Positions 6,286-47,086 of a DNA stretch of 47,838 nucleotides are shown here, piece after piece. The DNA comes from an uncultured Verrucomicrobiota bacterium (GTDB taxonomy: Bacteria; Verrucomicrobiota; Verrucomicrobiia; Chthoniobacterales; JACTMZ01): assembly GCA_903934135.1 (NCBI GenBank), contig CAIZMQ010000025.1:1-47838 (forward strand), read 5' to 3'. The position numbers and the translations under genes are program-made. The notes beneath the pieces are model-generated. The model was not told where the DNA came from and made no database searches. It saw only the letters and a list, made by a program, of their open reading frames with translations. Each line of letters opens with the position of its first letter. Position 1 is the stretch's first letter.

Positions 6286-6475
6286 AGTGTTCAGTGATTG
6301 GCTAAGGCCCGTTTGGTCGCTGAGCCGACCTATCTACGTCCGCCGAAGCGGACTGCGGTTCGAAGACTCGGCTCGGTGTTCAGTTTTCCGTCGGAGGGAC
6401 TGAAGTCTTCCCAGTATCGCGATTTTCCGGCTCTGCAAATACTGAACACTGGACACGAAAAACTCTCATCTCACT
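6286..6475. repeat. Heptamer-periodic repeat units between two genes
   Basis: The gap between the L,D-transpeptidase and the minus-strand membrane gene contains three groups of 7-bp units. On the plus strand: AGTGTTC, AGTGATT (6286-6299) and GGTGTTC, AGTTTTC (6375-6388). Facing them: ACTGAAC, ACTGGAC, ACGAAAA, ACTCTCA (6441-6468), whose complement is the same RGTKTTC family. The last unit abuts the stop codon of the gene ending at 6471. Between them lies a 6-bp-stem hairpin with a CGAA loop (6338-6353). I see no gene here. Confidence 0.55.
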
Positions 6476-8177
6476 CCTCCAGCAAGCAGGGGGTGAGGAG
6501 GTAAAGGACGCCGCTCGGGGTGGTCGCCAATGGTGGCGCGCACGGGACCCACGGTAGGGAGGAGTCGGGCCAGCGTTCTTTTTCTTTCCGGCCCCAGAAA
6601 AGGTAGTGGGTCTGCAGGCCGCGGGCCGCATCGCGCCAACCCTCGCGGCCTGACATCAAGACGTCCAACTTTTCGGACACCGGGCCGTAGTCAAGACCCT
6701 GACTGAAAAGGTGGCCGTCATGGCCCATGACCACGGGTTGTCCAAGGAGCAAGGCCGGATGGTCGTAAGCCGGGGCGCAGGCCAGGCGGGCGTTGACCGG
6801 AAGATGGCGGAGCAGGAATTGCACGTCGTCCAATTCGGCGCGCCCGGCGATTTTGTAGCCGTGTCGTCCGTCAAGGCCCCCGGCCAGCGCGAGCGCACCG
6901 GAGGTGAAGAGGGCCAAGCATGCCGCGATGCGCAGTCCGAGCGGCCAGTGCTTGATCAGACCGTCCCAAAGCAATGGCGCGAGGACGAGGTAACCCCAGA
7001 CGATGAGCTTGGTATTGTCCCAAGGCCAGGCGGCGAAAAGAAAAAGGAAAGAGAAGGCGAGGGTGGCCGCCGCGACGCCATAAAAGACGCGGGTTGCGGT
7101 ATCGGCCGCCCCACGCCGCAAGAGCACGATGCCGAGCACGGCAGTCAAGGGAAGAAAGAGTCCGAAGTTTTCCAGCCAGAACCACCATCCATTTTCGCCC
7201 TGCATCCAGCCCGGCGCCCAGCGCAGCGCGTTCGGTGCGGTGAAGTTGCCGGTCACCATGCGGACCAGCCAGGTGGCAGGAATCACGGCGAGCAGGGTGA
7301 CACTGAGAAAGTCGCGGGAGCGTCCCGTTCGCCAACCGGCAAAGAAGCAGACGGCGAGAAGAACGCTGAGAAAGACGAAAGCCGGCGCGTTGAAGAAGGG
7401 CATCGAGGCATAGAGCGCCGCCTGGGCGGGCACGGAAAGGCGTGGTCCGTCTGATCCGGAAAGCCGAGTGCGCCAGACGGTCAGGAGGACAAATCCCGCC
7501 GGCAGCGAGAAGAGCATCCCTCGCTGTGTCACCAGCATGGTGAGGAAAAGGTTTTTCCAAGCCGCAGCGTCTTGTTGCCCGTCAAGAACGCCTTCCCGGA
7601 GCAGGACCAAGGCGCCGAGTCCTCCGGCGAAAAGGAAGGAGGCGAGGGCAAAGCCGCGACCATAACGCCAGAGCGCCGCGGCCGTCGCGGCCGCCCCGAG
7701 CAGCCCCACCCAGCGCAGGCCGGCGATAACCGGCAGGCCGAGCACGCCGAGGATGGCGTTCCAGAAGTCCATGCCCGGGTGATAAGGAAACACGGCGCCG
7801 GCGAGGAAAGGATTCTCCGGCCAGAAAGTGCCGCCATTGGCCCAGCGCAGGATGAGATTAAGGTGCAGCGCGATATCACCGAGGTTGTGTGGCGAAAGAA
7901 TTTTCAGGTCGGGGCCCTCGGGATAAACGACCCAGAGGAAGGCGCGCAGGGCGGCGAGGCCGAAGACCACGAAAAGGACCGCGTCGGCGGTGGTGATTTT
8001 CTGTCGCGGGGCGCTCGCGCCACGGGCCGCGGCGATGCCGGCCGACAAACCGAGCGCCATGGCGATCCACGCCCCGCGCGGCTCCAATCGTCCGGCCAAA
8101 GTGGAGAGCCCGGCCGCGGCAATGGTGGTGACGGCAACAAAAACAAGGCCGCCGCAGAGGATGCGCCAGCCGATCAC
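6471..8177 (-). CDS. Polytopic membrane protein, glycosyltransferase-like, unknown family
   Basis: The 568-residue product has about 11-13 hydrophobic segments, starting with two helices at about 1-50. A periplasmic-type loop after the third helix (YPEGPDLKILSPHNLGDIALH, about 87-107) is followed by a tryptophan- and proline-rich segment (WANGGTFWPENPFLAGAVFPYHPG in two halves). The acidic and histidine loop and helix count recall GT-C enzymes, but I do not recognise the exact family. The start is GTG at 8177, and its first bases overlap the TGA of the upstream Agl23-like gene (GTGA), indicating translational coupling. It probably works with that gene in glycan assembly; this is an inference from coupling. 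Confidence 0.75.
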   Translation of the reverse strand: MIGWRILCGGLVFVAVTTIAAAGLSTLAGRLEPRGAWIAMALGLSAGIAAARGASAPRQKITTADAVLFVVFGLAALRAFLWVVYPEGPDLKILSPHNLGDIALHLNLILRWANGGTFWPENPFLAGAVFPYHPGMDFWNAILGVLGLPVIAGLRWVGLLGAAATAAALWRYGRGFALASFLFAGGLGALVLLREGVLDGQQDAAAWKNLFLTMLVTQRGMLFSLPAGFVLLTVWRTRLSGSDGPRLSVPAQAALYASMPFFNAPAFVFLSVLLAVCFFAGWRTGRSRDFLSVTLLAVIPATWLVRMVTGNFTAPNALRWAPGWMQGENGWWFWLENFGLFLPLTAVLGIVLLRRGAADTATRVFYGVAAATLAFSFLFLFAAWPWDNTKLIVWGYLVLAPLLWDGLIKHWPLGLRIAACLALFTSGALALAGGLDGRHGYKIAGRAELDDVQFLLRHLPVNARLACAPAYDHPALLLGQPVVMGHDGHLFSQGLDYGPVSEKLDVLMSGREGWRDAARGLQTHYLFWGRKEKERWPDSSLPWVPCAPPLATTPSGVLYLLTPCLLEE

Positions 8178-9709
8178 AGCTCACTCCTCCTCGGCCGCCG
8201 GAGTTGCGCCGCATTTTCCATCGCGGCGTGAAGTTCGTCTTTGATCAAAGCAACGCACTGATCGACCCCGCTGCGGAGGGCAAAGCGCACTTCGTGGTAG
8301 CCGGGGCCCAACTGCGCTCGGATGGCGTCCGCTTTGTCCAACTCGACCACATGGAAGGCGGTGTCGGCGGGCACCGGGTCCGGAATTTTTCCGCCGTAGT
8401 AACCGATGTTGGGGAAATCCCCCAAGATCCAGGGAAGCGGATAGTAGCTCTCGAGATAGACCGCACCACGGGTGTGCACGCGTCGCGGATCGGCCGCGGC
8501 CAATTCGAGGAGAGGGCGGGTCAATTGGTCCATCTCGCGCCGGGTCTGCACATAGACATAAGGTTCGCTGTCGTCCTCGTAGCGGAAGAAGTTGAGCCTC
8601 ACGGTCATGGCCAGCGACACGGCCAGCAGGGCGGCTGCGGCGAGGCGCACCGGGGTCCGTCCGGTCGCGGCAACGGCGGCTCCGAAGAAGAGGAAAAAAG
8701 GCCAGATGATGGAGGTGATGCACCAAGGGGTTTTGTAGGGCACGATGGAGTAGGCGAGGAGGATGCCGCCGGCCAGGATGGCGAGAAGGCGCGGCCCGGG
8801 CGGACCCGGCCAGGCGTAACGCACGGCCCAGACCAAGCCAGCCAGGGCCGGCCACTCGTAGCGGGCGAAAAGGGCGAGCCAGTAATAGTTGACCCAGGGC
8901 AGCAGTTGGTAGGCTTCCTTCCCGTGGCCCTGGCCTTCGGTTCCGGTTTTGGTCCAGGCCGCCAGCGCCTCGAAAGGGCCGGATAAACCGCCCCAGTGGA
9001 GGAAATTTCCGGAATAGAAAAAAACCAAGAGGAACAAGGCGATAGCGCCGGCGGTGCAGACACCGGCTGGCGTCCATTGGCGTTGCGGTGCGCGACGCAG
9101 GGGCGGAGCAAGGGGAGCGACGCGGTTCCAGAGCAGCATGAGGCCGGCGGCCAGAACCAAGGATCCGGCGTGGATGGTGTAGGTCTCTTTGTTGAGCACC
9201 ATTCCGGTCAGTCCGAGTACGGCGGCCCACAGGCCGGCCCGGTCGCGGTCCAACCAAAGGGCGATGGCACCCCAAGTGAAGAGCATGGTGAAGAAGACGA
9301 ACCACGGTTCGTGGATCGAATACCGTCCGTAAAAAACACAAGCGGGCGAGACAGCGAAGGCCAGCGCTGCCCAGCGCACCGCTTCGCGTCCGAACCAGCG
9401 GGCGAAAAGAAAAAAAACCGGAAGACAAAGCAGACTGGCCAAAACAACCGGCAGCCGCAGCGCCCAAAGGTTGCGTCCGAGCAGTTCCTGCGAGAGAAAG
9501 ACGGTGTAAAAATGCCATGGGCCGTGGAAATTATCCGGAGTGTAAGCAAAGGTCCCTGTCTCTCGCAGGCGGTCGGCGAACCATCCGTTGACCCCTTCAT
9601 CGAAATGCGGGGCCTTGAGATCAAGCAGGACAAGGCGCAGCACGGCCGCGAGGGCCGTGATGGCGATGAGGTCCCACGGCCAAGAGCGCATTTTTCCGGG
9701 TAACCGCAT
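8174..9709 (-). CDS. Agl23-like (TIGR03663-type) membrane protein
   Basis: This product of about 511 residues matches the TIGR03663 pattern, a GT39-related family annotated as flippase-activity-associated Agl23. After the first helix comes LDLKAPHFDEGVNGWFADRL with the acidic DE pair, then TPDNFHGPWHFYTVFLSQ and multiple helices, ending in a soluble domain of about 150 residues. The family is tied to transfer or translocation of polyprenyl-linked sugars in archaea and some bacteria. The start is ATG at 9709 (MRLPGK) or 9691 (MRSWPW); the longer frame to 9754 would run into the divergent GT2 gene. Only about 14 bp separate the divergent starts. It is coupled to the downstream membrane gene by a GTGA overlap. 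Confidence 0.82.
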   Translation of the reverse strand: MRLPGKMRSWPWDLIAITALAAVLRLVLLDLKAPHFDEGVNGWFADRLRETGTFAYTPDNFHGPWHFYTVFLSQELLGRNLWALRLPVVLASLLCLPVFFLFARWFGREAVRWAALAFAVSPACVFYGRYSIHEPWFVFFTMLFTWGAIALWLDRDRAGLWAAVLGLTGMVLNKETYTIHAGSLVLAAGLMLLWNRVAPLAPPLRRAPQRQWTPAGVCTAGAIALFLLVFFYSGNFLHWGGLSGPFEALAAWTKTGTEGQGHGKEAYQLLPWVNYYWLALFARYEWPALAGLVWAVRYAWPGPPGPRLLAILAGGILLAYSIVPYKTPWCITSIIWPFFLFFGAAVAATGRTPVRLAAAALLAVSLAMTVRLNFFRYEDDSEPYVYVQTRREMDQLTRPLLELAAADPRRVHTRGAVYLESYYPLPWILGDFPNIGYYGGKIPDPVPADTAFHVVELDKADAIRAQLGPGYHEVRFALRSGVDQCVALIKDELHAAMENAAQLRRPRRSEL

Positions 9710-9723
9710 AAAAAAATAGTTGT

Positions 9724-10458
9724 ATGGCAGAATCTGGACCGGATGACGTGTCAATTGTGGTGCCGGCCTGGCGCGAGGAGCGCCGCATCGGGCGGGCCGT
9801 GCGGGAATTGCGTGCTTTGGCCGCCACCTTGCCCGGCCTGCGCGAGATCATTGTGGTGGTTGAACCCGGCGGGGACGGCACGGCGCAGGCCGCTCTCGAG
9901 GCGAGGCAAGGCGACCCGTCGGTCTGCGTGGTGGAGAATGCCGAGCATCGCGGCAAAGGATCGGCAGTCCGTACGGGCATGCGGCGGGCTTCGGGCGGTA
10001 TCATTTTTTTTATGGATGCGGACCTCAGTGTTCCCCTGGCCCACGTGGCCCCGTTCGTCGCCCATCTCACCGCCCACCCCGAGGTTGCCGCAGTGATCGG
10101 AAACCGTCGTCATCCGGAAAGTGTCCTGACCAAGCGGCAGCATTTTTTGCGCGAGCGCGCCGGTCGTCTTTTCAACCGGGCGGTGAGGGGCCTTGGTCTG
10201 AGTGTGAGCAAGGATACGCAGTGCGGGTTCAAGGCCTTCCGCCGCGCGGCGGCCGGCGAAATTTTTTCGCGGGCGCGGATTGATGGCTTTGCCTTCGATA
10301 CGGAGGTTCTGCTCCTTGCCCGGAAACTCGGTTTGCGGGTCGACGAGCTTCCGGTGGAGTGGATCAACGACGAAGAAACCAAGTTCCGTCCGCTCAGTGA
10401 CGGGTGGCGCAGCTTTCGTGATTTGCTTAAGATCCGGGTGTTCTTGGGGAAAGTTTAG
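9724..10458 (+). CDS. Family 2 glycosyltransferase, dolichyl-phosphate glucosyltransferase-like
   Basis: The 244-residue soluble GT-A enzyme starts with DVSIVVPAWREERRIGRAV, the GT2 nucleotide-binding strand. It has EHRGKGSAVRTGMRRASG, the DXD metal site in FFMDADLSVPL (about 97-107), and the acceptor segment KDTQCGFKAFRR. KD.QCGFKaF is typical of the DPG_synthase subgroup (Alg5/DPM-like), which loads a sugar onto a polyprenyl phosphate. It has no membrane anchor. It is divergent from the Agl23-like gene, which would use such a lipid-linked sugar, so a shared glycan pathway is likely. Its 3' end overlaps the convergent MFS gene by 32 bp. Family is confident; donor and acceptor are unknown. 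Confidence 0.88.
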   Translation: MAESGPDDVSIVVPAWREERRIGRAVRELRALAATLPGLREIIVVVEPGGDGTAQAALEARQGDPSVCVVENAEHRGKGSAVRTGMRRASGGIIFFMDADLSVPLAHVAPFVAHLTAHPEVAAVIGNRRHPESVLTKRQHFLRERAGRLFNRAVRGLGLSVSKDTQCGFKAFRRAAAGEIFSRARIDGFAFDTEVLLLARKLGLRVDELPVEWINDEETKFRPLSDGWRSFRDLLKIRVFLGKV

Positions 10459-11758
10459 CGGCGGCAGGGTGGGCACCCGGTTCGTCGGCCTTCACCCGCA
10501 GGGTGAGTAGCGCGGCGAGCAGCATGGCAAATCCGCCGAAAACCACGGCGCTCAAACGGTTGACCTGCGGAAAGTATTCCATCGCGCGGCTGAGCAGGAT
10601 TGCGACGAGGATCTGCGGGATGACAATGAAGAAGTTGAAGATGCCCATGTAGACTCCCATGCGGTCGGACGGAAGCGCGCTGGAAAGCATGGCGTAGGGC
10701 ATGGAGAGAATGGAGGCCCACGCGACACCCACACCGATGAAGGCGATCTTGAGCAAGAGGGGATCGTTGATGAAACCCACGCTGGCCAAGCCGAGGCCGC
10801 CAAGGGCGAGGGAAACGACATGGATCGATTTCGCGCTCATTTTCCGCCCGAGCCAGAGGAACACCATCGCGGTGATGAAGGCGGTGAAGTTGTAGACTGC
10901 GAAGCATTCGTTCGCGAGGTCGATGCCTTGCTGGTAGAGGTCCGATTTTGTGTCCGTCGCGCCAAGAATGTTCCGGGCCACAGCCACCGAAAAAAATATC
11001 CACATGGCGAAAAGACCCATCCACGTGAAAAATTGAACCGCCGCAAGTTGCTTCATGCGCGGGGGCATTTCCCTGAAAGCCACCCAGATTTCACCCCAGC
11101 CTTCGTTCTTCCTGCGGCGCAACTCCTCCATGTCCTCCGGCGGATATTCTTTCGTGGTGACGATGGTCCAGAGCACCGAAAGCAGAAAAACCACCGCGCC
11201 GATGGTGAAGGCCCAGATCACAACCTGCGGGATGGCCTGCTCAGCATTCGGAGCGGTGGACACCCCCCATTTGCCCAGCCATCCGGGTAGCAGTGAGGCA
11301 ATGACCGCGCCTGCGCCGATGAAAACGCTCTGCATGGCGAATCCTACGGTGCGTTGCTCCTCGGGCAGCAGATCGGCCACAAAAGCGCGGAAAGGTTCCA
11401 TGCTGACATTGACCGAGGCATCGAGAATCCAGAGCAAGCCGGCCGCCATCCACAGCACGCCGGAATGCGGCATGGCCAGGAGGGCCAGCGAGGCGAGTAT
11501 GGCGCCGACGAGGAAATACGGCCGTCGCCGACCGAGCTTGTTCCACGTCCGGTCGCTCATGTAGCCGATGATTGGTTGCACGATCAGTCCCGTGACCGGT
11601 GCGGCGAGCCAGAGCAGCGGGAGTTGGCTCTCATTCGCTCCGAGCCGTTCGTAGATCGCTGACATGTTGCCCATCTGCAAACCCCAGCCAAACTGGATTC
11701 CGAAGAACCCGAATGACATGTTCCAGATCTGCCAGAAAGAGAGATGGGGTTTCTGCAT
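10427..11758 (-). CDS. MFS transporter, GPH/SLC45-like sugar:cation symporter
   Basis: The 443-residue carrier has 12 predicted helices. The diagnostic loop after helix 2-3 reads IGYMSDRTWNKLGRRRPYFLVG, the MFS motif A variant found in SLC45/GPH-type disaccharide carriers. VNVSMEPFRAFVADLLPEEQR also fits that group. It probably takes up a di- or oligosaccharide with a cation. I use the ATG at 11758 (MQKPHLSF). An upstream TTG at 11800 is less likely. It lies 45 bp downstream of the BASS-family transporter on the same strand, and its 3' end overlaps the convergent GT2 gene. The substrate is not deducible. Confidence 0.85.
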   Translation of the reverse strand: MQKPHLSFWQIWNMSFGFFGIQFGWGLQMGNMSAIYERLGANESQLPLLWLAAPVTGLIVQPIIGYMSDRTWNKLGRRRPYFLVGAILASLALLAMPHSGVLWMAAGLLWILDASVNVSMEPFRAFVADLLPEEQRTVGFAMQSVFIGAGAVIASLLPGWLGKWGVSTAPNAEQAIPQVVIWAFTIGAVVFLLSVLWTIVTTKEYPPEDMEELRRRKNEGWGEIWVAFREMPPRMKQLAAVQFFTWMGLFAMWIFFSVAVARNILGATDTKSDLYQQGIDLANECFAVYNFTAFITAMVFLWLGRKMSAKSIHVVSLALGGLGLASVGFINDPLLLKIAFIGVGVAWASILSMPYAMLSSALPSDRMGVYMGIFNFFIVIPQILVAILLSRAMEYFPQVNRLSAVVFGGFAMLLAALLTLRVKADEPGAHPAAAKLSPRTPGS

Positions 11759-11803
11759 GGGGGAGGCCGGAGGCTTAAACAAAAAGTCGGCGCCCGGCAA
11801 GCG

Positions 11804-12727: not shown

Positions 12728-12804
12728 GTGGCCGACCACTACGCAGCTTACGCCGCAGGTTTGACAATGAAAAACGGCCAGATTTACTGCAGGGAGACAC
12801 GGCT

Positions 12805-15317: not shown

Positions 15318-15369
15318 AGTGAGGAGAAGTGACGAGTGATGTGTGGCGGGTGAAGAGAGATGAGTGGCG
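15318..15369. repeat. Heptamer-periodic array, RGTGAYG family
   Basis: Between the divergent nuoG and lipocalin genes lies a run with a 7-bp period: AGTGAGG (15318-15324), a 3-nt break, then AGTGACG, AGTGATG, TGTGGCG, GGTGAAG, AGAGATG, AGTGGCG (15328-15369). Positions G2, G4 and G7 are the most constant. It lies where a promoter would be expected for both genes, so it could also be regulatory. Confidence 0.55.
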
Positions 15370-15407
15370 GGTTTGACTCGCGTGGCAAGGGGTGGTTTGC
15401 TCGTCGT

Positions 15408-15932
15408 ATGGACCGAATTTCTTTTTGGCTGCTGCTGGTTGGCGGAATGGTTTTGTTCGGCGGTTGTGCGGCGAAGCCGCCGCTCAAGGCGGTTGATTAT
15501 GTCGATCTCCCGCGGTTCATGGGCGACTGGTGGGTTCTCGCGCACATTCCTTACTGGTTGGAGCGCGACACTTATGATTCGAAGGATACTTATCGCCTGC
15601 GGCCGGACGGGAAAATGGACAACATTTTCAGCTACCGCAAGGGCGGGTTTGACGGTCCGGAAAAGGTGATGAACGGCATCGCTTGGGTGGTGGACAAAAA
15701 ATCCAATGCTGAATGGCGGGTCCAGTTCCTCTGGCCCATTGCGCTGCCTTACTACGTGCTTTATCTCGATCCGGACTACCGCTTCATGGCGGTCGGCCAT
15801 CCCTCGCGCGACTACGGTTGGGTCATGGCACGCGACAAGCGGATGAGCGAGGCGGACTACGCGGTGGTGATGAAGGCGCTGGAGGCCCAGGGCTATGACC
15901 CGGCGCAGTTCCGCAAAGTGCCTCAGAGTTAG
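15408..15932 (+). CDS. Blc-type lipocalin lipoprotein
   Basis: The 174-residue product starts with a lipoprotein signal peptide (MDRISFWLLLVGGMVLFGGC; lipobox FGGC). The mature part is a lipocalin barrel: the first motif is MGDWWVLAHIPYWLER (GxW), and the late motif YRFMAVGHPSRDYGWVMARD matches the conserved RDY..W..SR-like segment of bacterial Blc. Blc proteins sit in the outer membrane and bind fatty acids or lysophospholipids, often under envelope stress. The preferred start is ATG 15408; a frame from 15360 would put junk before the signal. The heptamer array starts one base after its stop codon, followed by lgt, the enzyme that would lipidate it. Confidence 0.88.
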   Translation: MDRISFWLLLVGGMVLFGGCAAKPPLKAVDYVDLPRFMGDWWVLAHIPYWLERDTYDSKDTYRLRPDGKMDNIFSYRKGGFDGPEKVMNGIAWVVDKKSNAEWRVQFLWPIALPYYVLYLDPDYRFMAVGHPSRDYGWVMARDKRMSEADYAVVMKALEAQGYDPAQFRKVPQS

Positions 15933-16021
15933 TTGAGGGTTGAGAGATGAAAGTTGAGAGAAAAGGCAGGATAGCAGGGCTAGTTTTTCCGTTCCCTCAA
16001 CCCTCAACTTTCAACTCTCAT
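15933..16021. repeat. Facing heptamer arrays (TTGARRG) forming an imperfect inverted repeat
   Basis: Left arm 15933-15960 is four exact-phase heptamers TTGAGGG, TTGAGAG, ATGAAAG, TTGAGAG. Right arm 15994-16021 is CCCTCAA, CCCTCAA, CTTTCAA, CTCTCAT, the same family on the other strand. A 33-nt spacer separates them. The 28-bp arms could pair with G-T wobbles and A-C mismatches. The left arm starts directly after the lipocalin stop, and the right arm ends 14 bp before the lgt start. It may act as a terminator-like structure or be a mobile repeat. Confidence 0.75.
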
Positions 16022-16035
16022 CCGCGCCCCGCGCA

Positions 16036-17004
16036 ATGATCGCCTACTGGGTGCATAATTGGGATCCGTTTGCCGTGCAGTTCGGCGGTGGATTCGGGGT
16101 GAGGTGGTACGGGTTGGCTTACTTGGCAGCGTTTGCCGCGTCATTTTTCCTCTACCGTTATCTGGCGCAGCGCGGATTTGCGGTCATCCCGGCCGACAAG
16201 GTCGGTGATTTCATCACGGGGTGCGCCGTGTTCGGGGTGCTGATCGGCGGGCGCTTGGGCTATGTTTTGTTTTATGATTTCGGCGCGTTCGTGCGGGAAC
16301 CGCTGATGTTTTTCCGGGTGTGGGAGGGCGGGATGTCGGCGCACGGGGGCATTCTCGGGGTTGCGGTCTACACCCTGTGGTATGCGTGGCGCCACAAAGT
16401 GAATTGGCCGGGATTGGGGGATAATCTCGTGGTCGGCGCGGCCCTCGGAATTTTCTTCGGACGGCTGGCCAATTTCGTCAACGGAGAGCTCTACGGCCGT
16501 CCGACCGGGGTGGCGTGGGCGGTGAAATTCCCCAAGGAGCTTTACGAGGCCCCGGTGGAAACCCAGCGCGAGGTGCTGGCCGCGGTGCAGGAAAGGTTTG
16601 CCGCACCGGTCGGGTTGGAAGAGGTGGTGGCTGCGGTGCCGGGGTCGGCCGAAGTCACGGTACTGCTGGGACAATTTCTCGCCCCGCGGCATCCGTCGCA
16701 AATTTACGAGGCACTGCTTGAGGGGTTGTTGCTTTTTGTCCTGTTGTGGATGGTGCGGATCAAGGTGCGGGTGCCCAACGGGGTGGTCACAGGGTTGTTT
16801 TTCGTGGGTTATGCCCTGACGCGGGGCCTGGCCGAAAGTTTCCGCTTTCCGGATTCGGGCTATGTTGGATTTTTAACCACAGGTCAATTTCTCTCGATTT
16901 TTCTGCTCTTAATCGGCGCGGGGTTTTTGCTCGCGGCATGGCGGCGGCCGGTTTATCCACCGGCTTGGGCGGGCCAAGGGCGCCATTCCGTCAGTGTTCA
17001 GTAG
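16036..17004 (+). CDS. lgt: Prolipoprotein diacylglyceryl transferase
   Basis: Lgt moves a diacylglyceryl group from phosphatidylglycerol to the lipobox cysteine of prolipoproteins in the inner membrane. The 322-residue product has about seven helices and the hallmark segments VRWYGLAYL (about 22-30), EGGMSAHGGILG (about 97-108, with the catalytic-loop histidine) and the signature FGRLANFVNGELYGRPT (about 142-158; canonical GRxGN, here GRLAN). HPSQIYEALLEG is near 225. An insertion of roughly 45 residues between the signature and HPSQ is plausible for this phylum. The last residues (SVSVQ) are encoded by a heptamer-repeat unit, so the C terminus may have been reset by the repeat. Confidence 0.95.
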   Translation: MIAYWVHNWDPFAVQFGGGFGVRWYGLAYLAAFAASFFLYRYLAQRGFAVIPADKVGDFITGCAVFGVLIGGRLGYVLFYDFGAFVREPLMFFRVWEGGMSAHGGILGVAVYTLWYAWRHKVNWPGLGDNLVVGAALGIFFGRLANFVNGELYGRPTGVAWAVKFPKELYEAPVETQREVLAAVQERFAAPVGLEEVVAAVPGSAEVTVLLGQFLAPRHPSQIYEALLEGLLLFVLLWMVRIKVRVPNGVVTGLFFVGYALTRGLAESFRFPDSGYVGFLTTGQFLSIFLLLIGAGFLLAAWRRPVYPPAWAGQGRHSVSVQ

Positions 17005-17006
17005 CT
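16993..17006. repeat. Heptamer units overlapping the lgt stop codon
   Basis: AGTGTTC (16993-16999) and AGTAGCT (17000-17006) are in the 7-bp phase of the RGTKTTC family; the second supplies the lgt stop codon. With only two units, chance cannot be excluded. Confidence 0.4.
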
Positions 17007-19363: not shown

Positions 19364-19391
19364 GAAAGTTTAGCCAAACTCAAAACAAGCA

Positions 19392-19430
19392 CGCCGCCGG
19401 GTTGATGATACCCGGCGGCGTTGTTTTTTT
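19392..19430 (+). terminator. Rho-independent terminator of glnN
   Basis: Perfect 10-bp arms CGCCGCCGGG (19392-19401) and CCCGGCGGCG (19411-19420) around a 9-nt loop, followed by TTGTTTTTTT. It lies about 30 bp after the glnN stop. Confidence 0.92.
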
Positions 19431-26084: not shown

Positions 26085-26930
26085 TCAGTCCTTTTTCACG
26101 ATCTGGCCGTCTTGGTTGACGCGGGCGGACATAATCGTGTTGATTTCGACGGCGAGATCGCGCATTTGCTCGACTTCCGATCTCGAGGGTGCCCGGTCGG
26201 CAGCGCCGCCGGCAATTTTGCGGATGGCTTCGAGCCGCGAGGTGAGGGAGGTGACCAGTTCGGTATCCTTGAGGCGCGGGTTGAGGGTTGAGAGCCGCTC
26301 GAGGAAGTAGTCCATCACATCGGGTTTCATCAGCCCGGCGGCACGCTGCGGGCTGTAATCGTCCGCGGTGACAAGGCAGCCGATTTCAAACCCGCGCAGC
26401 CAGCCCCCGAGGCTGATCATGTGGGCCATTTCTTCGTCCCGCAGTTCGATCATCGCTTCCTCGACACCGGCCTGGGTCTTGATCAATTCGAGTTTGAGTT
26501 CTGCCCAGTCGCCGCGCATGCCTAGCTCGAGCAGGCTGTTGGCGTGGGTCGAGAGGCGTTGCCCTACGGCAAGACTCTTGGCCTGCCGGAGCAGGGCGCG
26601 CCCGACTTGCTGGATGAGGCCCTTCTGTTCGGCCACCACGGCAAAGAACCCGTCGCAGATGAGCGCTCCGAAATTCAGGGAAGTCTGGAAGCGGTTGCTG
26701 TAGGTGCGTTCGAAATCCGTCTCGGCGAGGAGTTGGACCGGAACGGGCTTGAAGAGTTCCAATTCGTTGAAGAGGCGCTGGATGGAGGGCGCGGTCAGCT
26801 CGTTCACGCCGAGTTCCTCGCGGGCGTAGGTGTCGGAGAGTATTTCCGCCGCAGTCTCCTCGTCTTGGGCGCGGGCACCGTCCGTGGCAAGGGCAAGCGC
26901 GGCGGCAAGGAATAGGCTCCGCTTGGACAT
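26085..26930 (-). CDS. Hypothetical secreted protein
   Basis: Not recognised. The 281-residue product has a clear Sec signal peptide (MSKRSLFLAAALALATDGARA) with predicted cleavage after ARA. The mature part is mostly helical and acidic, with no cysteine pattern suggesting a cofactor (one CDG and one GCL). The C terminus carries an MSARVNQDGQIVKKD tail. The start ATG 26930 is set by the signal peptide; a longer frame exists upstream. Codons for STLN near residue 215 coincide exactly with two TTGAGRG heptamers read on the other strand (26281-26294). Followed at 33 bp by the DUF885 gene. Confidence 0.75.
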   Translation of the reverse strand: MSKRSLFLAAALALATDGARAQDEETAAEILSDTYAREELGVNELTAPSIQRLFNELELFKPVPVQLLAETDFERTYSNRFQTSLNFGALICDGFFAVVAEQKGLIQQVGRALLRQAKSLAVGQRLSTHANSLLELGMRGDWAELKLELIKTQAGVEEAMIELRDEEMAHMISLGGWLRGFEIGCLVTADDYSPQRAAGLMKPDVMDYFLERLSTLNPRLKDTELVTSLTSRLEAIRKIAGGAADRAPSRSEVEQMRDLAVEINTIMSARVNQDGQIVKKD

Positions 26931-27024
26931 GCCGGCACCCTGCCACAAATGGCCCCGGGTGTCCATCGGTGGCCCGCCCCATTTCGCGCTGGCCCGGCGG
27001 GCCGGACGGACGGATGATAGGGCT

Positions 27025-39801: not shown

Positions 39802-39813
39802 CGCTACTTTTTT

Positions 39814-42091: not shown

Positions 42092-42188
42092 GACGACAAA
42101 TGCGGCTTAGCGGGGATAAAGTCCCGCGTAAAGACAGCACCGCGCCTCGTTCTTGCCGCGGGGCGGTCGCAGGTGCAGTTTGACGGGA

Positions 42189-43259
42189 ATGACCCTGGTC
42201 AATTTGGCGGAATATGAGGAGGCGGCGCGGGCCAAGCTGCGGCGGGAGGCTTACGATTATTATGCCGGCGGGGCCAATGATGAGGTCACCTTGCGGGCCA
42301 ACCGCGAGGCTTACGGGAGGTTGGCGCTGTATCATCGTGTGCTGCGCGATGTGGCGGTGCGGGATACTTCGGTCGAGTTGCTCGGGGAGCGGATTTCTCT
42401 TCCGGTGATGGTGGCGCCGACGGCGTTTCAACGGATGGCATGTGACGAGGGTGAGTGCGCCACGGCGCGGGCGGCGGGGCGGGCGGGGACGATCATGGTG
42501 ATGAGCACGCTGGCCACGACCGTGATTGAAGAGGTGACCGCTGCGGCGACCGGTCCGACGTGGTTCCAGCTCTACATTTACAAGGATCGCGGGGCGACGC
42601 TGGATCTGGTGCGGCGGGCCGAGGCGGCGGGCTGCCGAGCGCTGGTGCTCACCGTCGACACGGCGGTGTGGGGACGGCGCGAGGCGGATGTGCGCAATAA
42701 TTTCACGCTGCTGGACGGGTTGACCGTGGCGAATCTCGCGGCGCACGCGAAGCAGAACTTTCCTCACGGTTTGGCCGGTTCCGGTTTGGCGGCGTATGCG
42801 GCGGCGATGCTTGATGCGTCGTTGACGTGGAAGGATCTCGAATGGTTGCGCGGACAGACAAAGCTGCCGGTTGTGCTCAAAGGTGTCGTGCATCCCGACG
42901 ATGCGCGGGCCGCGGTGGAACACGGGGCGGCGGGGGTGATCGTTTCCAACCACGGTGGACGCCAGTTGGACTCGTCACCGGCGACGATCGATGCGTTGCC
43001 GGGAGTGGTGGAGGCCGTTGCGGGTCAGGTGCCGGTGCTGCTCGATGGTGGCGTTCGGCGGGGGACGGATGTGGTTAAAGCGCTGGCGCTGGGTGCGCGT
43101 GCGGTGCTGGTGGGGCGGCCGATTTTGTGGGGGTTGGCGGTGGATGGGGAAGACGGGGCGTATCGCGTGTTGGAGTTGCTCAAGGCGGAGTTCGATCTGG
43201 CCATGGCGTTGTGCGGGGTGCGGACGGTGGGGGAGATTGAGCGCGGGTTGGTGGGGTAG
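42189..43259 (+). CDS. FMN-dependent alpha-hydroxy-acid oxidase or dehydrogenase
   Basis: The 356-residue TIM-barrel flavoprotein has YDYYAGGANDEVTLRANRE (active-site tyrosine), PVMVAPTAFQRMACDEGE, WFQLYIYKDR, LTVDTAVWGRREADVRN and the catalytic SNHGGRQLD segment (histidine near residue 254) followed by LLDGGVRRGTDVVKALALGA. All key residues of the glycolate/lactate oxidase family are present. Substrate may be lactate, glycolate or a longer 2-hydroxy acid; sequence alone does not decide. Start ATG 42189 is chosen because it gives the normal N terminus. A heptamer array follows its stop by 7 bp. Confidence 0.93.
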   Translation: MTLVNLAEYEEAARAKLRREAYDYYAGGANDEVTLRANREAYGRLALYHRVLRDVAVRDTSVELLGERISLPVMVAPTAFQRMACDEGECATARAAGRAGTIMVMSTLATTVIEEVTAAATGPTWFQLYIYKDRGATLDLVRRAEAAGCRALVLTVDTAVWGRREADVRNNFTLLDGLTVANLAAHAKQNFPHGLAGSGLAAYAAAMLDASLTWKDLEWLRGQTKLPVVLKGVVHPDDARAAVEHGAAGVIVSNHGGRQLDSSPATIDALPGVVEAVAGQVPVLLDGGVRRGTDVVKALALGARAVLVGRPILWGLAVDGEDGAYRVLELLKAEFDLAMALCGVRTVGEIERGLVG

Positions 43260-43266
43260 TTTTGGG

Positions 43267-43294
43267 AGTTTTCGGTGTTCAGTGTTTGGTGAGT
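43267..43294. repeat. Heptamer array, RGTKTTC family
   Basis: Four consecutive in-phase heptamers AGTTTTC, GGTGTTC, AGTGTTT, GGTGAGT start 7 bp after the oxidase stop codon. The first two are the same units found at 6375-6388 in reverse order. Confidence 0.6.
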
Positions 43295-43367
43295 TCTTGT
43301 GGGTCGTGACAGGCGAGCAGGCTGCCCGTGCCCCTTGGCTGATGCAGCGGCAGCGTTGCAATTTTTT

Positions 43368-43711
43368 AGGCGTGCGGTGGTGCAGCGGGTGTCAAAGGCC
43401 TCGGTGACGGGAGAGGGTTGTGTCACCGGATTGATCGAAGGTGGGTTGCTCGTGTTGGTCGGGATGGCGGCTGTGTTTTTGTCGCGAGCCATTTCACCCT
43501 ACCGCCCAGCACACGCAAGGGAACGAAACCCTCTTGGCATCGCGCGGCGGGGCCAGAGGTAGCCGGACCGCTTTACGAGGCATTTGTACGGAAGACGGAG
43601 GAACTGCTAGGCCGCGCGGTGGCCACGGGGGAATTCGGGGCGATGATGGAGGTGGCGTTGGCTGATGACGGTCCGGTTACGTTGGTGCTGGACTCGCGGC
43701 TGCGCGAGTGA
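43368..43711 (+). pseudogene. dtd: Decayed D-aminoacyl-tRNA deacylase
   Basis: Dtd removes D-amino acids from mischarged tRNA. Frame 1 from 43371 reads RAVVQRVSKASVTGEGCV, then GLIEGGLLVLVGM, the exact N-terminal block of Dtd. Frame 2 from 43463 reads DGGCVFVASHFTL, then TRKGTKPSWHRAAGPEVA, PLYEAFV, TGEFGAMMEVALADDGPVT and LVLDSR, the C-terminal two thirds. Three lesions are visible: the start ATG is AGG (43368-43370), about 40 central codons are missing at about 43463, and the junction shifts frame. Total residual coding is about 114 codons against a normal 145-150. The catalytic SQFTL is SHFTL, but the GPVT motif survives. The gene is therefore non-functional, unless rescued by an unseen copy. 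Confidence 0.9.
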
Positions 43712-43927
43712 GGTTGAGTAGGCGATTATCCGGTAGGGTCCGGGCCTTTGCTGCCCGACTAACTCGCGCGTTGGTGGGTGTGCGCTGGGAAGTAGCTGGC
43801 GGGTGAAAAAGGACTGCAAGGTAGGGCGCAACGTCCCCAGCGCTCCGGTACGGGTGCGCGGCGGGTCCAACCGGAACGCAGTGGAGATGGCTCATAGGCA
43901 AAGGCCCCACCCTACCATGGAATGTCA
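43712..43927. repeat. GGTAGGG-bearing intergenic segment
   Basis: This 216-bp gap before the cupin has no convincing gene. It contains GGTAGGG at 43732-43738 and 43820-43826 and the inverse CCCTACC at 43910-43916, each next to GC-rich palindromic text (for example GGGCCTTTGCTGCCC). A fourth GGTAGGG with a similar following stretch is at 46168. This suggests a short dispersed repeat, not a tRNA or protein gene. Confidence 0.45.
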
Positions 43928-44281
43928 TTAATCGAAGTAGACGTCCGCATGGTCGTAGAAGGGGGAGCAGGAGCAAAGGAAGCGGAGTTTTGACCGTGCG
44001 GTGATCTGGTGGCGGGCGCCGGCGGGAATGAGGATGGCGTCGCCGGGGCCGACGTCACGGGTTTCGCCATCGACGTCCATGAGGGCCGTGCCCTCGAGGA
44101 GGAAATAAAATTCCTCGCAGAGTTTGTGGTAGTGGCGTTCGGTGGCTTGGCCCGGGGCCATGGTGGCCTCGGCCAGACTGTGTTTTTCGACGGGCGCATT
44201 GGTGCGGTCGAGGATGCTGCGAATGGTGGAGCCGTCTTTGGTCGTGAAGGGGCTTTGATTTTCGAGCTGCTGGACTATCAT
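43928..44281 (-). CDS. Single-domain cupin protein
   Basis: The 117-residue product has both cupin motifs: ERHYHKLCEEFYFLLEG (HxH...E...G, about 49-65) and PGDAILIPAGARHQI (about 79-93, with the third histidine). Metal binding is likely. Such small cupins can be isomerases, dioxygenases or sugar-binding proteins; the sequence does not tell. The start at 44281 leaves only 11 bp to the divergent SDR gene, so at least one promoter must lie inside a neighbour's coding region. A GGAG sits directly against the ATG. Confidence 0.85.
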   Translation of the reverse strand: MIVQQLENQSPFTTKDGSTIRSILDRTNAPVEKHSLAEATMAPGQATERHYHKLCEEFYFLLEGTALMDVDGETRDVGPGDAILIPAGARHQITARSKLRFLCSCSPFYDHADVYFD

Positions 44282-44292
44282 CTCCGCACAAT

Positions 44293-45090
44293 ATGCGATT
44301 TTTCGAAGGTTGCACGGCTTTGATTACCGGGGCGTCGTCGGGACTGGGTGCGGAGTTCGCCCGGCAACTGGCGCCAGTGGCCGGCACTTTGGTCTTGGTC
44401 GCCCGGCGGGCGGAGTATTTGGACGAAATGAAGGCCGGATTGGCGGCGCGGTATCCGGGGTTGCGGGTGTTTGTTTATGTGATGGATATCACGCGGGAAA
44501 ACCAGAACCGCGATTTCGCGGAGTGGCTGGTGAAGGAAAAGATCCGGGTTAATTTTTTGGTCAACAATGCGGGGATGGGCGACCGCGGGCCCTTCGCTAC
44601 CGGAGACTGGGCCAAAATTCACGCCATGCTGGAACTGAACATCGTGGCCTTGACTCGGTTGACCCATCATTTGCTCCCCATGTTGCTGGAGGGCGGGCGC
44701 GGGGCCATCCTCAACGTGAGTTCCATTGCGGGATTGATTCCGTTGCCGCACATGTCGGTTTATGCGGCGACCAAGGCCTATGTGAACAGCTTCAGTGATG
44801 GTTTGCGCATGGAGTTGCGCGATACGGGGATCACCGTGACGGCGGTGTTGCCTGGTCCGGTGGAGACCGAGTTCGGCCGGGTGGCTTCGCGGGGCACGGG
44901 TGAGCCGGAATGGAGTTCGCCGGACGAATTGCTCGTTTCGGTGGAAGAGGTGGTGCGCCAGGCGCTGGTTGCCGTGGCGGCGGACAAGGCGCGGGTCATT
45001 CCCGGCTGGAAAGTCGCCTTGTTCATGGGCTTGGCCGTGGCGCTGCCGCTGGGTGTTCTGCGGGCGATTTTGCAGCGCCAGGCGCGCTGA
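44293..45090 (+). CDS. Short-chain dehydrogenase/reductase (SDR)
   Basis: The 265-residue classical SDR has the cofactor site ALITGASSGLGAEFA (about 9-23; TGxxxGxG), NNAGMGDRG near 94, the serine in ILNVSSIAG and the catalytic YAATK (about 157-161). A hydrophobic C-terminal helix (VALFMGLAVALPLGVLRAIL) suggests membrane association, as in some SDRs acting on lipids. NADP(H) preference is likely from the basic ARRAEY after strand 2, but unproven. It starts 11 bp from the divergent cupin. Confidence 0.9.
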   Translation: MRFFEGCTALITGASSGLGAEFARQLAPVAGTLVLVARRAEYLDEMKAGLAARYPGLRVFVYVMDITRENQNRDFAEWLVKEKIRVNFLVNNAGMGDRGPFATGDWAKIHAMLELNIVALTRLTHHLLPMLLEGGRGAILNVSSIAGLIPLPHMSVYAATKAYVNSFSDGLRMELRDTGITVTAVLPGPVETEFGRVASRGTGEPEWSSPDELLVSVEEVVRQALVAVAADKARVIPGWKVALFMGLAVALPLGVLRAILQRQAR

Positions 45091-45131
45091 GTGGAGGATC
45101 TGATTTTTTTTTCCGGACGTAACCATTGGCA

Positions 45132-46163
45132 ATGAATCCAAGCAAGATCCACAGCGTGCCGCTTGATCCGGTGGCTCTCACGCGCTTTAAAAAAACCTTC
45201 GAGCTGATCAATACGCACCTCTACAGCGTGGAAGAGCGGATCCGGGCTCAGGCGCGGGCCTTTGACCCTGCGATGGAAGGCTATGTGGGCTATGTTTGTA
45301 ATTCGTCCGGCAAGCGGTTGCGTCCGGCTCTCGCCCTGCTGGCCGGCGGGTCCACGGGCAAGATCACTTCGAGCCATGTCGATCTGGCCGTGATCATTGA
45401 ACTGATCCACATCGCCACCTTGGTCCATGACGACATCATGGACGGCGCGGATTTGCGCCGGGAACAACCGACGGTCAATGCCAAGTGGGGCAATGCGATC
45501 AGCGTGCTGCTGGGCGACGCGCTGCTCGCGCACGCCATGCGGTTGGCCACCAACTTTTCCGAGACGGAAGTGGTGCGGCGCATCGCCGATGCGGCGGCGG
45601 AAGTTTGCACCGGGGAAATCATCCAGACGCAGCGGAGGTTTGATCTCAATTTGTCGGTGCCGGACTACTACAAGATTGTCGAAATGAAGACAGGGGCGCT
45701 TTTCGCCGCGTCGGCCGAGTTGGGGGCATTTTTGAGCGAGACAACCCCGGAACGGATCGGGGCGCTGAAGCAATTCGGGCTCAAACTCGGGACGGCCTAC
45801 CAAGTCTATGACGACTGCCTCGATCTGGTCGGGACCGAGGAGGAAATCGGCAAAACCCTGGGGAGCGATTTGCGCAAGGGGAAGCTGACCTTGCCCTTGA
45901 TTTTTCTTTTGCAGTCGGCCCGACGGAGCGGGGATCACGATAAGGTAAGTGCCTTGTTGCTCGGAGGTGACGAAGTGGAGGCGGAGAAGATCGTCTCCAT
46001 GCTCTCGGAACGCGGGGCCCTGGAGCAGACCGTCCTGGCGGCCAGTGCGTTGGTGGAAGAGGCGCTGACCGGTTTGGATGCCCTGGACGAAAACCGGTTC
46101 ACCAGCGGCTTGCGCGGAGTGGCGGAGTATTTGCAGGCTTTGATCCGGCGGGTGGCGGGGTAA
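45132..46163 (+). CDS. Trans-isoprenyl (octaprenyl/heptaprenyl-type) diphosphate synthase
   Basis: This enzyme extends isoprenyl chains for quinones, using building blocks from the MEP pathway (dxs is at the other window end). The 343-residue product has GKRLRPALALLAGG (about 60-73), the first Asp-rich motif DDIMD (100-104), EIIQTQ, KTGALF and the second motif YDDCLD (226-231), followed by DLRKGKLTLPLI. Long-chain specificity is inferred from small residues before the first motif (IHIATLVHDD) and from length; family is certain, chain length is not. The start ATG 45132 is preferred over the TTG at 45126. Confidence 0.9.
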   Translation: MNPSKIHSVPLDPVALTRFKKTFELINTHLYSVEERIRAQARAFDPAMEGYVGYVCNSSGKRLRPALALLAGGSTGKITSSHVDLAVIIELIHIATLVHDDIMDGADLRREQPTVNAKWGNAISVLLGDALLAHAMRLATNFSETEVVRRIADAAAEVCTGEIIQTQRRFDLNLSVPDYYKIVEMKTGALFAASAELGAFLSETTPERIGALKQFGLKLGTAYQVYDDCLDLVGTEEEIGKTLGSDLRKGKLTLPLIFLLQSARRSGDHDKVSALLLGGDEVEAEKIVSMLSERGALEQTVLAASALVEEALTGLDALDENRFTSGLRGVAEYLQALIRRVAG

Positions 46164-46167
46164 TGGT

Positions 46168-46200
46168 GGTAGGGGCACGCGGCTCGCTTGCCCGTTGCAA
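46168..46200. repeat. GGTAGGG repeat unit upstream of radC
   Basis: GGTAGGG (46168-46174) is followed by GCACGCGGCTCGCTTGCCCG, similar in layout to the copy at 43732. It lies in the 110-bp gap between the polyprenyl synthase and radC. A frame through it would add 37 residues to RadC, but these read as junk. Confidence 0.4.
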
Positions 46201-46273
46201 CCGGGCGGATGAGCGACCGCTCGGCCTTAACTTTCGCCCGACGCAGGCTGGCACGGTTGCCTCGCGGTCGCGT

Positions 46274-46987
46274 ATGCTCCCGCGCGTGGCGACGCCGAAG
46301 ATCAAAGACTGGCCGGAGGAGGAGCGTCCGCGGGAGAAGTTGATGCACCGTGGGGCGGACGCGTTGAGCGATGCGGAGTTGCTCGCTATTTTTTTGCGCA
46401 CCGGGACGCCGGGGCGCACCGCGGTGGATGTCGGGGACGAAATGATCAAGGCGGCGGGCGGATCCTTGGCGCGGATGGCCCCGATGACGGTGAAAGAGTT
46501 GCGCAAACTGGCCAAGGGAGTGGGCCTGGCCAAGGCATGCGAAATGGCGGCGGCTTTTGAGGTCGGCAAGCGGTTGGCGCGGCAGACCGCGCAGAGCGAG
46601 CCGTTGGGGACGCCGGAGAAAATTTACGCTTTCATGGGGCCTTTGCTGCAAAATTTGCCCCGGGAGTCGCTGCGGGTCGTATTGCTTGATACGCGCCACC
46701 GGCTGATCCACGCGGAAGAAGTTTCGCTCGGGACGATCAACGAAAGCCTGGCCCATCCGCGGGAAATATTGCGCCCGGCGATCAGCCACGGAGCTTACGC
46801 CTTCGTGCTGGTGCACAATCATCCGTCGGGTGATCCGACGCCGAGCGAGGCGGACCGCGCCCTGACCCGCCGCATCCGCGAGGCCGCGGATCTGCTGCAG
46901 ATTCACTTGCTCGATCATGTCATCATCGGCCGCGAGCGCCCCGGAGCCCCTCCTTACTTCAGCTTCAAGGAGCACGGGCTGCTTTGA
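46274..46987 (+). CDS. radC: RadC-family JAMM protein (UPF0758)
   Basis: The 237-residue product has an N-terminal helix-hairpin-helix part (about 25-90; MHRGADALSDAELLAIFLRTG) and a C-terminal JAMM/MPN+ domain with the metal motif H181-x-H183-x10-D194 in HNHPSGDPTPSEAD. The exact role of RadC proteins is not settled. The start ATG 46274 gives the normal N terminus (MLPRVATPKIKDWP). A heptamer repeat pair starts two bases after its stop codon. Confidence 0.95.
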   Translation: MLPRVATPKIKDWPEEERPREKLMHRGADALSDAELLAIFLRTGTPGRTAVDVGDEMIKAAGGSLARMAPMTVKELRKLAKGVGLAKACEMAAAFEVGKRLARQTAQSEPLGTPEKIYAFMGPLLQNLPRESLRVVLLDTRHRLIHAEEVSLGTINESLAHPREILRPAISHGAYAFVLVHNHPSGDPTPSEADRALTRRIREAADLLQIHLLDHVIIGRERPGAPPYFSFKEHGLL

Positions 46988-46988
46988 G

Positions 46989-47086
46989 TTGAGGGTTGAG
47001 GGTTGAAAGTTGAGGGAGAGTCAGAGGATGATTCCGTTTCTCTGGCGAATTTGATTTTCTCTCAACCCTCATCCCTCAACTCTCAA
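46989..47086. repeat. Facing heptamer arrays (TTGARRG), second copy
   Basis: Left arm 46989-47016: TTGAGGG, TTGAGGG, TTGAAAG, TTGAGGG. Right arm 47059-47086: CTCTCAA, CCCTCAT, CCCTCAA, CTCTCAA. The spacer is 42 nt. It starts one base after the radC stop and ends 5 bp before the lpxA ATG, the same 28-bp arm length and placement as at 15933-16021, although the flanking genes differ. Confidence 0.75.

What the first reader, a model, noticed from the sequence alone, without database searches (positions are those of the whole stretch)
6286..47086. A dispersed family of heptanucleotide-periodic repeats at gene ends
Intergenic sites at 6286-6299, 6375-6388, 6441-6468, 15318-15369, 15933-16021, 16993-17006, 43267-43294 and 46989-47086 all hold units in strict 7-bp phase. 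The sequences differ (TTGARRG; RGTKTTC; RGTGAYG) but the period does not. Several begin within a few bases of a stop codon, and one supplies the lgt stop. Heptameric short tandem repeats are known from cyanobacteria. A similar system with several unit families in this group is, as far as I know, undescribed; 7 bp is not a codon multiple, which argues against decayed coding sequence. They could be mobile, structural or terminator-like.
Basis: partly seen in the sequence, partly recalled or inferred. Interest (0 to 1): 0.85.

Follow-up and report, generated by a model that had tools for sequence, protein, structure and literature searches.

The report
Four-heptamer DNA repeats at gene edges
This bacterium and its relatives carry short DNA blocks of about 31 bases, each made of four 7-base units, that tend to sit against the ends of genes and point away from them; they behave like inserted dispersed repeats rather than slippage repeats, and what puts them there is unknown.

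Summary
The main family (F1) is a fixed arm, AGTTGARRG-TTGARRG-WTGARRG-TTGARRGA: 104 of 107 arms fit, and 3 of 101 unique arms show a fifth unit. A second family (AGTKTTC) also has mode four (11 of 20); a third (RGTGAYR, 5 runs) does not show this. Arms occur singly or as convergent pairs. The outer end, from which the C-poor strand leaves the gene, lies within 8 nt of a gene boundary in 54 of 81 arms, the inner end in 9 (20.8 expected), at starts and stops alike. Relatives show insertion: radC and lpxA overlap in 17 of 30 loci read, while six genomes of this genus carry an F1 element there. Arms keep their place while spacers change; in 2 of 24 orthologous gap sets another heptamer family holds the same place and orientation. 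Paired arms do not covary, so a selected RNA hairpin is unlikely. Closest known: GGGAATC repeats of Xanthomonas and Nostoc (four units, convergent pairs, same polarity), attributed to quadruplexes; no F1 arm of 101 has four GGG runs. The repeats are sparse, and no mobilising or binding factor was found.

The parts
15931..15961 (+). F1 (TTGARRG) four-unit arm; outer end overlaps the stop of the lipocalin gene by 2 nt
15962..15992 (.). spacer of the lipocalin|lgt element; the same in G388 and G390, different in G387, G396 and G389
15993..16023 (-). F1 arm, convergent partner; outer end 12 nt from the lgt start
46987..47017 (+). F1 four-unit arm at the radC stop
47018..47057 (.). spacer of the radC|lpxA element
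47058..47088 (-). F1 arm, convergent partner; outer end 3 nt before the lpxA start (47092)
43267..43291 (+). F2 (AGTKTTC) arm of about four units, 7 nt after the stop of an FMN-dependent dehydrogenase gene; longer in G396, missing in G388
6438..6464 (-). F2 arm of about four units, 6 nt from the stop of the called gene 6471-8177(-)
6286..6299 (+). two-unit F2 fragment in the convergent gap 6264-6470
6375..6388 (+). two-unit F2 fragment in the same gap
16993..17006 (+). two-unit F2 fragment containing the lgt stop TAG
15324..15372 (+). F3 (RGTGAYR) run, about six units with mismatches, between divergent genes; its ends are not close to either gene

Best explanation
These are dispersed, non-coding inserted repeats, comparable in role to REP/BIME elements, whose unit in the main family is a fixed 'tetra-heptad' arm (4 x 7 bp plus a few bases). 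Single arms, or two convergent arms around an unrelated spacer, are inserted at tight gene junctions, including overlapping stop/start codons. They are kept because such a junction tolerates them and, in F1, because TGA every 7 nt closes all three frames. Shown here: fixed four-unit F1 arm, polarity, gene-edge position, presence/absence between relatives, spacer turnover with arm retention, swap of families at one place. Inferred: that an enzyme or DNA-binding protein acting in trans reads the 4 x 7 pattern. Three heptads are 21 bp, about two turns of B-DNA, so units 1 and 4 face the same side of the helix.
For: Fixed length: 104 of 107 arms score at least 25/31 on the four-unit scaffold; a fifth in-phase unit in 3 of 101 unique arms; the A at position 17 marks unit 3 only. 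Family f11 of the same class, my hand count of the places listed (listing truncated): 52 arrays, 32 with exactly four exact units, 20 with one exact three-unit match, 0 with five or more. Position: outer end within 8 nt of a gene boundary 54/81, inner 9/81, expected 20.8; single arms alone 32/49 against 8/49. F2: outer end nearer in 13 of 16 with room. Insertion: of 30 RadC loci read, 17 show lpxA overlapping the radC stop, 6 (all own genus) carry an F1 element or arm, 7 have another gap or no synteny. G387 and the second G392 copy read TTATGA-element-ATGAAC against the empty TTATGAAA of G389. TTCTGA stands on both sides of the insert in G390 and once in G389. G423 has an inverted pair of another heptamer family (GATGGAR) at the same radC|lpxA junction. 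F1 in G390 faces F2 in G396, and F1 in G391 faces F2 in G394, at the same boundary. Full-length matches to the two elements are mainly at orthologous loci; elsewhere mostly single arms match.
Against: No mobilising enzyme was found: PF01797 (Y1 transposase) is not detected in G000, G390, G391 and G394, which are rich in F1 matches, but is present in the also rich G392 and G396; all are drafts. Spacers are not shared between unrelated loci, so these are not copies of one composite element. The two junction duplications differ in length (4 and 6 bp), and the first is also what keeping a stop and a start codon would give. Arm survival at 80-90% flank identity could be selection for a function. 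The only two F1 arms in 325 kb of G394 taken without regard to hits overlap a gene call by 13 nt at the outer end, so neither meets the 8-nt criterion. The looser unit count gives 38 of 112 F1 runs with five units. F3 rests on 5 runs with 3 to 6 units.
Confidence: 0.52

Rival explanations
1. Selected gene-edge signal: the arm is a binding site for a DNA- or RNA-binding protein (for example a G-poor leader before start codons read by ribosomal protein S1, or a rut-like Rho site), and each heptamer family is a different solution to the same need.
For: Arms mostly persist in orthologous gaps while spacers change; 2 of 24 gap sets show F1 in one genome and F2 in another at the same boundary and orientation. 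TAACTGA heptamers of Beggiatoaceae sit just before start codons and a translational role was proposed (PMC4679880, abstract).
Against: Outer ends abut starts and stops alike (28 and 26 of 54; 21 and 30 of 51 in the looser set), so the mRNA strand is G-poor at starts but C-poor at stops; neither a leader nor a terminator predicts both. Genomes without any arm exist in 4 of 24 gap sets and at radC|lpxA.
Confidence: 0.23
2. Simple sequence repeats made by polymerase slippage, for which a 7-bp unit is favoured.
For: Heptamers were the most abundant class of long repeats in most genomes (Mrazek 2007, as summarised in PMC4679880 section 3). Long arrays of the same unit exist in some phylum members and in named genomes of other phyla.
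Against: In this genus the F1 arm stops at four units (fifth in 3 of 101), with a unit-3-specific base and mostly purine-for-purine variation. Slippage gives no reason for convergent pairs or gene-edge polarity.
Confidence: 0.12
3. RNA hairpins: paired arms form stem-loops that stabilise mRNA, attenuate transcription or couple a stop to the next start.
For: 21 of 86 F1 elements are convergent pairs; among neighbouring F1 arms less than 140 nt apart 21 are convergent, 1 divergent, 2 in the same direction. Both window pairs nearly fill the stop-to-start gap.
Against: Own arm pairs are no more complementary than arms swapped between elements (0.822 against 0.832; 4579 of 5000 permutations at least as good; 21 pairs, of which three elements entered twice in mirror image). 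65 of 86 elements are single F1 arms, though some have a weak or other-family partner. No Rfam family matches the window.
Confidence: 0.08
4. DNA quadruplex elements as proposed for GGGAATC repeats: four units because four G-tracts are needed.
For: Same unit preference, polarity and convergent pairing in Xanthomonas and Nostoc (PMC4692102 sections 10 and 16).
Against: 0 of 101 F1 arms have four GGG runs and 3 have four runs of two or more G; the F2 unit AGTKTTC has no G-tract.
Confidence: 0.03

Closest known systems
GGGAATC / GGGGA(C/T)T heptamer repeats of Xanthomonas and Nostoc (PMC4692102)
   Different: Other unit sequences, several families in one genome, no four GGG runs, a sharper limit of four units in F1 (lengths there run from 2 to 26 units), and empty/filled sites shown here
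TAACTGA direct repeats of Beggiatoaceae, Cyanobacteria and Bacteroidetes (PMC4679880)
   Same: Intergenic heptamers near start codons, patchy taxonomic spread, no known mechanism of spread
   Different: In the Guaymas genome, two to six direct copies mostly before start codons with one indirect repeat; here arms abut starts and stops alike and form convergent pairs
REP/BIME elements (GTAG/CGTC-tagged palindromes, PMC3733652)
   Same: Dispersed 20-40 bp extragenic units, single or in pairs; GTAG repeats are reported there as enriched in the verrucomicrobium Opitutus terrae
   Different: The arm is not a palindrome, carries no GTAG/CGTC tag, and four genomes rich in it show no Y1 transposase
MITEs (features recalled)
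   Same: Short inverted arms around a spacer, possible target duplication
   Different: Spacers are unrelated between loci; single arms are commoner than pairs
Cyanobacterial short tandemly repeated repetitive sequences (recalled; only search listings seen)
   Same: 7-bp units between genes
   Different: Tandem arrays of varying length by recall, not fixed polar arms

Membership tests
Slippage-type simple sequence repeat | copy number varies over a broad range | tested here: not met
   fifth unit in 3 of 101 F1 arms; 0 of 52 listed f11 arrays with five or more exact units (hand count); the looser count is less clear (64 of 112 with four, 38 with five)
Slippage-type simple sequence repeat | copy number changes between close strains at one locus | not tested
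   no strain-level genomes used
REP/BIME (GTAG/CGTC type) | dispersed extragenic unit of 20-40 bp | tested here: met
REP/BIME (GTAG/CGTC type) | unit is a palindrome with a GTAG or CGTC tag | tested here: not met
   consensus; 65 of 101 arms hold no C on the C-poor strand
REP/BIME (GTAG/CGTC type) | associated RAYT/Y1 transposase | tested here: inconclusive
   PF01797 not detected in G000, G387, G390, G391, G394; present in G388, G389, G392, G393, G395, G396; no relation to F1 number, and draft genomes
MITE | terminal inverted repeats with internal sequence shared between copies | tested here: not met
   the lgt and radC spacers recur mainly at orthologous loci
MITE | target site duplication of fixed length | tested here: inconclusive
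   ATGA at radC|lpxA, TTCTGA at L419 against G389; lengths differ
Xanthomonas/Nostoc heptamer repeats | preference for four units | tested here: met
   F1 and F2, 11 of 20; F3 too few
Xanthomonas/Nostoc heptamer repeats | gene-proximal with the G-rich strand downstream coding or upstream non-coding | tested here: met
Xanthomonas/Nostoc heptamer repeats | convergent inverted pairs | tested here: met
   21 of 86 elements; 21 convergent, 1 divergent, 2 same direction
Xanthomonas/Nostoc heptamer repeats | four G-tracts able to form a quadruplex | tested here: not met
   0 of 101 arms with four GGG runs
TAACTGA repeats | mostly just upstream of start codons | tested here: not met
   28 start and 26 stop boundaries among the 54 close outer ends
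Intrinsic terminator or other conserved RNA hairpin | arms covary | tested here: not met

The most novel reading that the evidence does not exclude
The conserved thing is the architecture, not the sequence: about four heptads, C-poor strand running outward from the gene, convergent pairing. Unrelated families (TTGARRG and AGTKTTC here, perhaps RGTGAYR and GATGGAR; GGGAATC in Xanthomonas, GGGGAYT in Nostoc) would be products of, or recognition sites for, one unrecognised bacterial system that installs or reads 4 x 7 bp arrays at gene edges, for example a polymerase that extends 3' ends with templated heptamers, or a protein that follows the helix in 7-bp steps (21 bp = two turns).
Probability: 0.22. 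Interest if true: 0.88.

Novelty: new variant of a known kind. Interest (0 to 1): 0.6.

Why it matters
Heptamer excess in bacterial intergenic DNA has been noted without an agreed cause; the printed ideas I saw are polymerase slippage and, for the G-rich kind, quadruplexes. A fixed four-unit arm with gene-edge polarity, shared by families that cannot form quadruplexes, argues against both as the general cause and gives a testable rule (number of units, polarity, empty sites). The elements also change operon junctions: they part overlapping, presumably coupled, genes such as radC-lpxA.

Tried and rejected
Three-frame stop array as the general function: F1 places TGA in all frames on the C-poor strand, but in F2 the TGA lies on the other strand (sequences). 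G-less translation leader and Rho (rut) site: not general, since starts and stops are abutted alike. RNA hairpin: no covariation. Composite mobile element with a shared core: DNA searches with the two elements match arms at many loci but the full element mainly at orthologous ones. RAYT mobilisation: no relation between Y1 transposase and F1 number in the genus. Two arm subtypes as in BIMEs: pairs combine an A-type with a T-type unit 3 in 13 of 18, but several pairs are orthologues of one another, so this is an observation only. A strict lag scan of the window alone found two stretches. Literature: eight searches listed no paper that, by title and abstract, describes such repeats in Verrucomicrobiota. 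The passages seen of PMC4210602 mention tandem repeats in Methylacidiphilum and no heptamer; the passages of PMC6749651 mention heptamer-derived satellites in Chloroflexus.

Weak points of my own work. Gene calls came from a small script (dicodon model) that missed the lipocalin gene and mis-started a neighbour; this was patched by hand. The F1 set was collected by similarity to the two window elements, so it favours full arms. Many arms are orthologues of each other, so the binomial value printed overstates independence. The 24 gap sets include gaps defined twice (L389/L406, L395/L408, L423/L444). My first pooled lag scan mixed the window with other contigs; splitting it showed that all three lag-7 stretches came from the window, so I added an unselected test in G394.
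Full report
What is there. The window is one contig (C25) of a 2.27-Mb draft genome of 182 contigs. I infer the order to be Chthoniobacterales of Verrucomicrobiota from the 0.9-Mb relatives; no call names it. The strong ones are two convergent inverted pairs of the TTGARRG family, between the lipocalin gene and lgt (15931-16023) and between radC and lpxA (46987-47088). The gene names follow Pfam domains; lpxA is my reading of the hexapeptide and acetyltransferase domains. TTGARRGTTGARRG with at most one mismatch occurs 13 times in the window against 0.26 expected, and GTGTTCAGT 5 times against 0.18. Three of the eight sites are two-unit fragments only.

How common. A lag scan (at least 17 of 21 matches, non-coding) finds 3 lag-7 stretches in the window and none at lags 4-6 and 8-15, but also none at lag 7 in 193,068 bases of the same genome not chosen for hits (one search had pooled the two). 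In 324,587 bases of the relative G394 taken as the first 20 kb of contigs 1-20, it finds 2 at lag 7 and 1 at lag 14, none at the other ten lags, expectation 0.0. At 16 of 21 the counts are 3 at lag 7, 4 at lag 14, 1 at lag 11 and 2 at lag 15. The lag-7 stretches there are two F1 arms and one F2 arm. So the repeats are sparse; the window is rich in them. By pattern the own genome holds 33 F2-like places against 4 for the reversed control, and 31 F1-like places against 19 for a weak control.

It is a fixed arm. I collected 86 F1 elements, 21 convergent pairs and 65 single arms, from six genomes of the genus counting the window's own (67 loci given; loci, mostly found by similarity to the two window elements). 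Of 107 arms, 104 fit a 31-base scaffold of four units; 101 are unique. The columns give AGTTGARRG-TTGARRG-WTGARRG-TTGARRGA, with purines in 88-99% at R positions and A in 54% at the first base of unit 3 but in under 10% in units 2 and 4. A fifth unit in phase is present in 3 of 101. In family f11 of the same class, the places listed give, by hand count, 52 arrays: 32 with exactly four exact units, 20 with one three-unit match, none longer; that listing is truncated. F2 (AGTKTTC) runs have 3, 4 or 5 units in 7, 11 and 2 of 20 cases. F3 (RGTGAYR) has 5 runs of 3 to 6 units, so the rule is not shown for it. A looser count for F1 (units with 5 of 7 matches allowed) gave four units in 64 and five in 38 of 112 runs. 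I take the surplus to be the purine-rich flank, since the strict test finds almost no fifth TTGA.

It has polarity. Taking the 5' end of the C-poor strand as the outer end, it lies within 8 nt of a gene boundary in 54 of 81 usable arms, the inner end in 9; uniform placement in the same gaps predicts 20.8. With at least 30 nt of free gap the figures are 40 and 2 of 64 against 10.2. Twenty of 101 arms were left out (8 inside a called gene, 3 without a gene on one side, 9 without gene calls). Single arms alone give 32 and 8 of 49. The boundary is a start in 28 and a stop in 26 of the 54; in the looser set it is 21 and 30 of 51. F2 leans the same way where there is room: outer end nearer in 13 of 16, though within 10 nt in only 6. 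The two F1 arms of the unselected G394 stretches overlap a gene call by 13 nt at the outer end and so do not meet the 8-nt criterion. Apparent start codons a few bases outside F1 arms, read by eye, are also seen in a same-order genome (L119) and in f11 (L126, L130). Of neighbouring F1 arms less than 140 nt apart, 21 are convergent, 1 divergent and 2 in the same direction.

It is inserted. RadC was found in 49 of 57 relatives and I read 30 of those loci. In 17, lpxA overlaps the radC stop. In 6, all of the own genus, an F1 element or arm lies between. In 7 there is another gap or no synteny, one of them (G423) with an inverted pair of a different heptamer family, GATGGAR. The empty junction is TTATGAAA (G389) or ATATGAAG (G390, G392 C18); filled ones read TTATGA-element-ATGAAC (G387, G392 C17). 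At lipocalin|lgt six genomes are filled, and G392 has 5 nt in place of the element, which I read as overlapping stop and start. A third case, G390 against G389, shows TTCTGA on both sides of the insert and once in the empty site.

Arms outlive spacers. Searches with the two whole elements match arms at many loci but the full element mainly at orthologous ones; a few other loci match over most of the length at 69-75% identity, chiefly through the two arms. In G390 the lgt element matches that of G000 at 97% although flanks are about 80-83% identical, while G387 and G396, with closer flanks (88% and 86%), carry another spacer; exchange of the element between lineages is a possible cause. In 24 orthologous gap sets (three gaps defined twice) arms mostly keep their place. 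In 4 sets one genome has no arm. In 2 sets F1 in one genome faces F2 in another at the same boundary and orientation (G390/G396; G391/G394). One gap has F2 at the stop and F1 at the next start in two genomes. Some spacers hold another repeat, GTAGCGGCGGTC..., that looks like a GTAG-type REP.

What it is not. Own arm pairs are no more complementary than swapped ones (0.822 against 0.832; 4579 of 5000 permutations at least as good). No F1 arm of 101 has four GGG runs. Rfam gives no match in the window. A Y1 transposase is not detected in G000, G390, G391 and G394, which are rich in F1 matches, but is in G392 and G396, also rich, and in four more same-genus genomes.

Spread. Exact three-unit F1 is in 48 of 387 genomes of the phylum sample and F2 in 39 of 387 (the reversed control matched in 1 genome). 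The F1 control also matched in several genomes, because pure TTGAAAG arrays read the same backwards. Long arrays of the F1 unit occur in some of these genomes and in named genomes of Bacteroidota, Planctomycetota and others, so slippage-like arrays do exist elsewhere.

Known relatives. The Xanthomonas/Nostoc paper (PMC4692102; sections 10 and 16 read, passages elsewhere) reports four-unit preference, convergent pairs and the same gene-edge polarity for GGGAATC-type heptamers, and identified no function. The Beggiatoaceae paper (PMC4679880; abstract and sections 3, 8 and 24 read) reports TAACTGA mostly before start codons. The GTAG-REP paper (PMC3733652; passages) notes Opitutus terrae as rich in GTAG repeats. 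I file this as a new variant of the Xanthomonas/Nostoc kind. It works like a REP/BIME element but fails the palindrome and tag tests.

Mechanism. Shown: insertion at gene junctions, fixed four-unit F1 arm, polarity, spacer turnover. Inferred: a trans-acting factor that needs four 7-bp steps; 21 bp being two turns of B-DNA makes this plausible. No factor was identified.

Noticed in passing
window 43260-43927: This gap holds a shortened remnant of a gene that looks like a D-aminoacyl-tRNA deacylase (recognised from memory, not by a call); a longer, apparently intact frame stands at the same place in G390, a remnant in G388, and shorter gaps in G387 and G396.
   Followed up: partly
L321/L322 (G392 contigs C18 and C17): G392 carries two radC-lpxA loci, one empty and one with the F1 element; a duplication or two strains in one draft genome.
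   Followed up: no
spacers in L391, L406, L447: A second dispersed palindrome, GTAGCGGCGGTC...GACCGCCGG-like, resembling GTAG-type REPs, lies between heptamer arms.
   Followed up: no
L068 17374, L073 4577, L076 15583 (G000): A further heptamer family with units like ACTTGAA/ACCTGAA/ACCTGAG.
   Followed up: no
L027, around the match (G000 C39:4272): An A+T-rich heptamer array (TCAACAT and CATTCAT units) in a genome whose window has 62% G+C.
   Followed up: no
window 19382-19430: A 21-nt inverted repeat followed by a T run at a convergent gene end, conserved in G388, G387, G396 and G390: by its look an ordinary intrinsic terminator.
   Followed up: partly
window 26281-26294: A two-unit F1 match inside a called gene (26085-26966, minus strand), the only two-unit F1 match in the window outside the two inverted pairs.
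   Followed up: no
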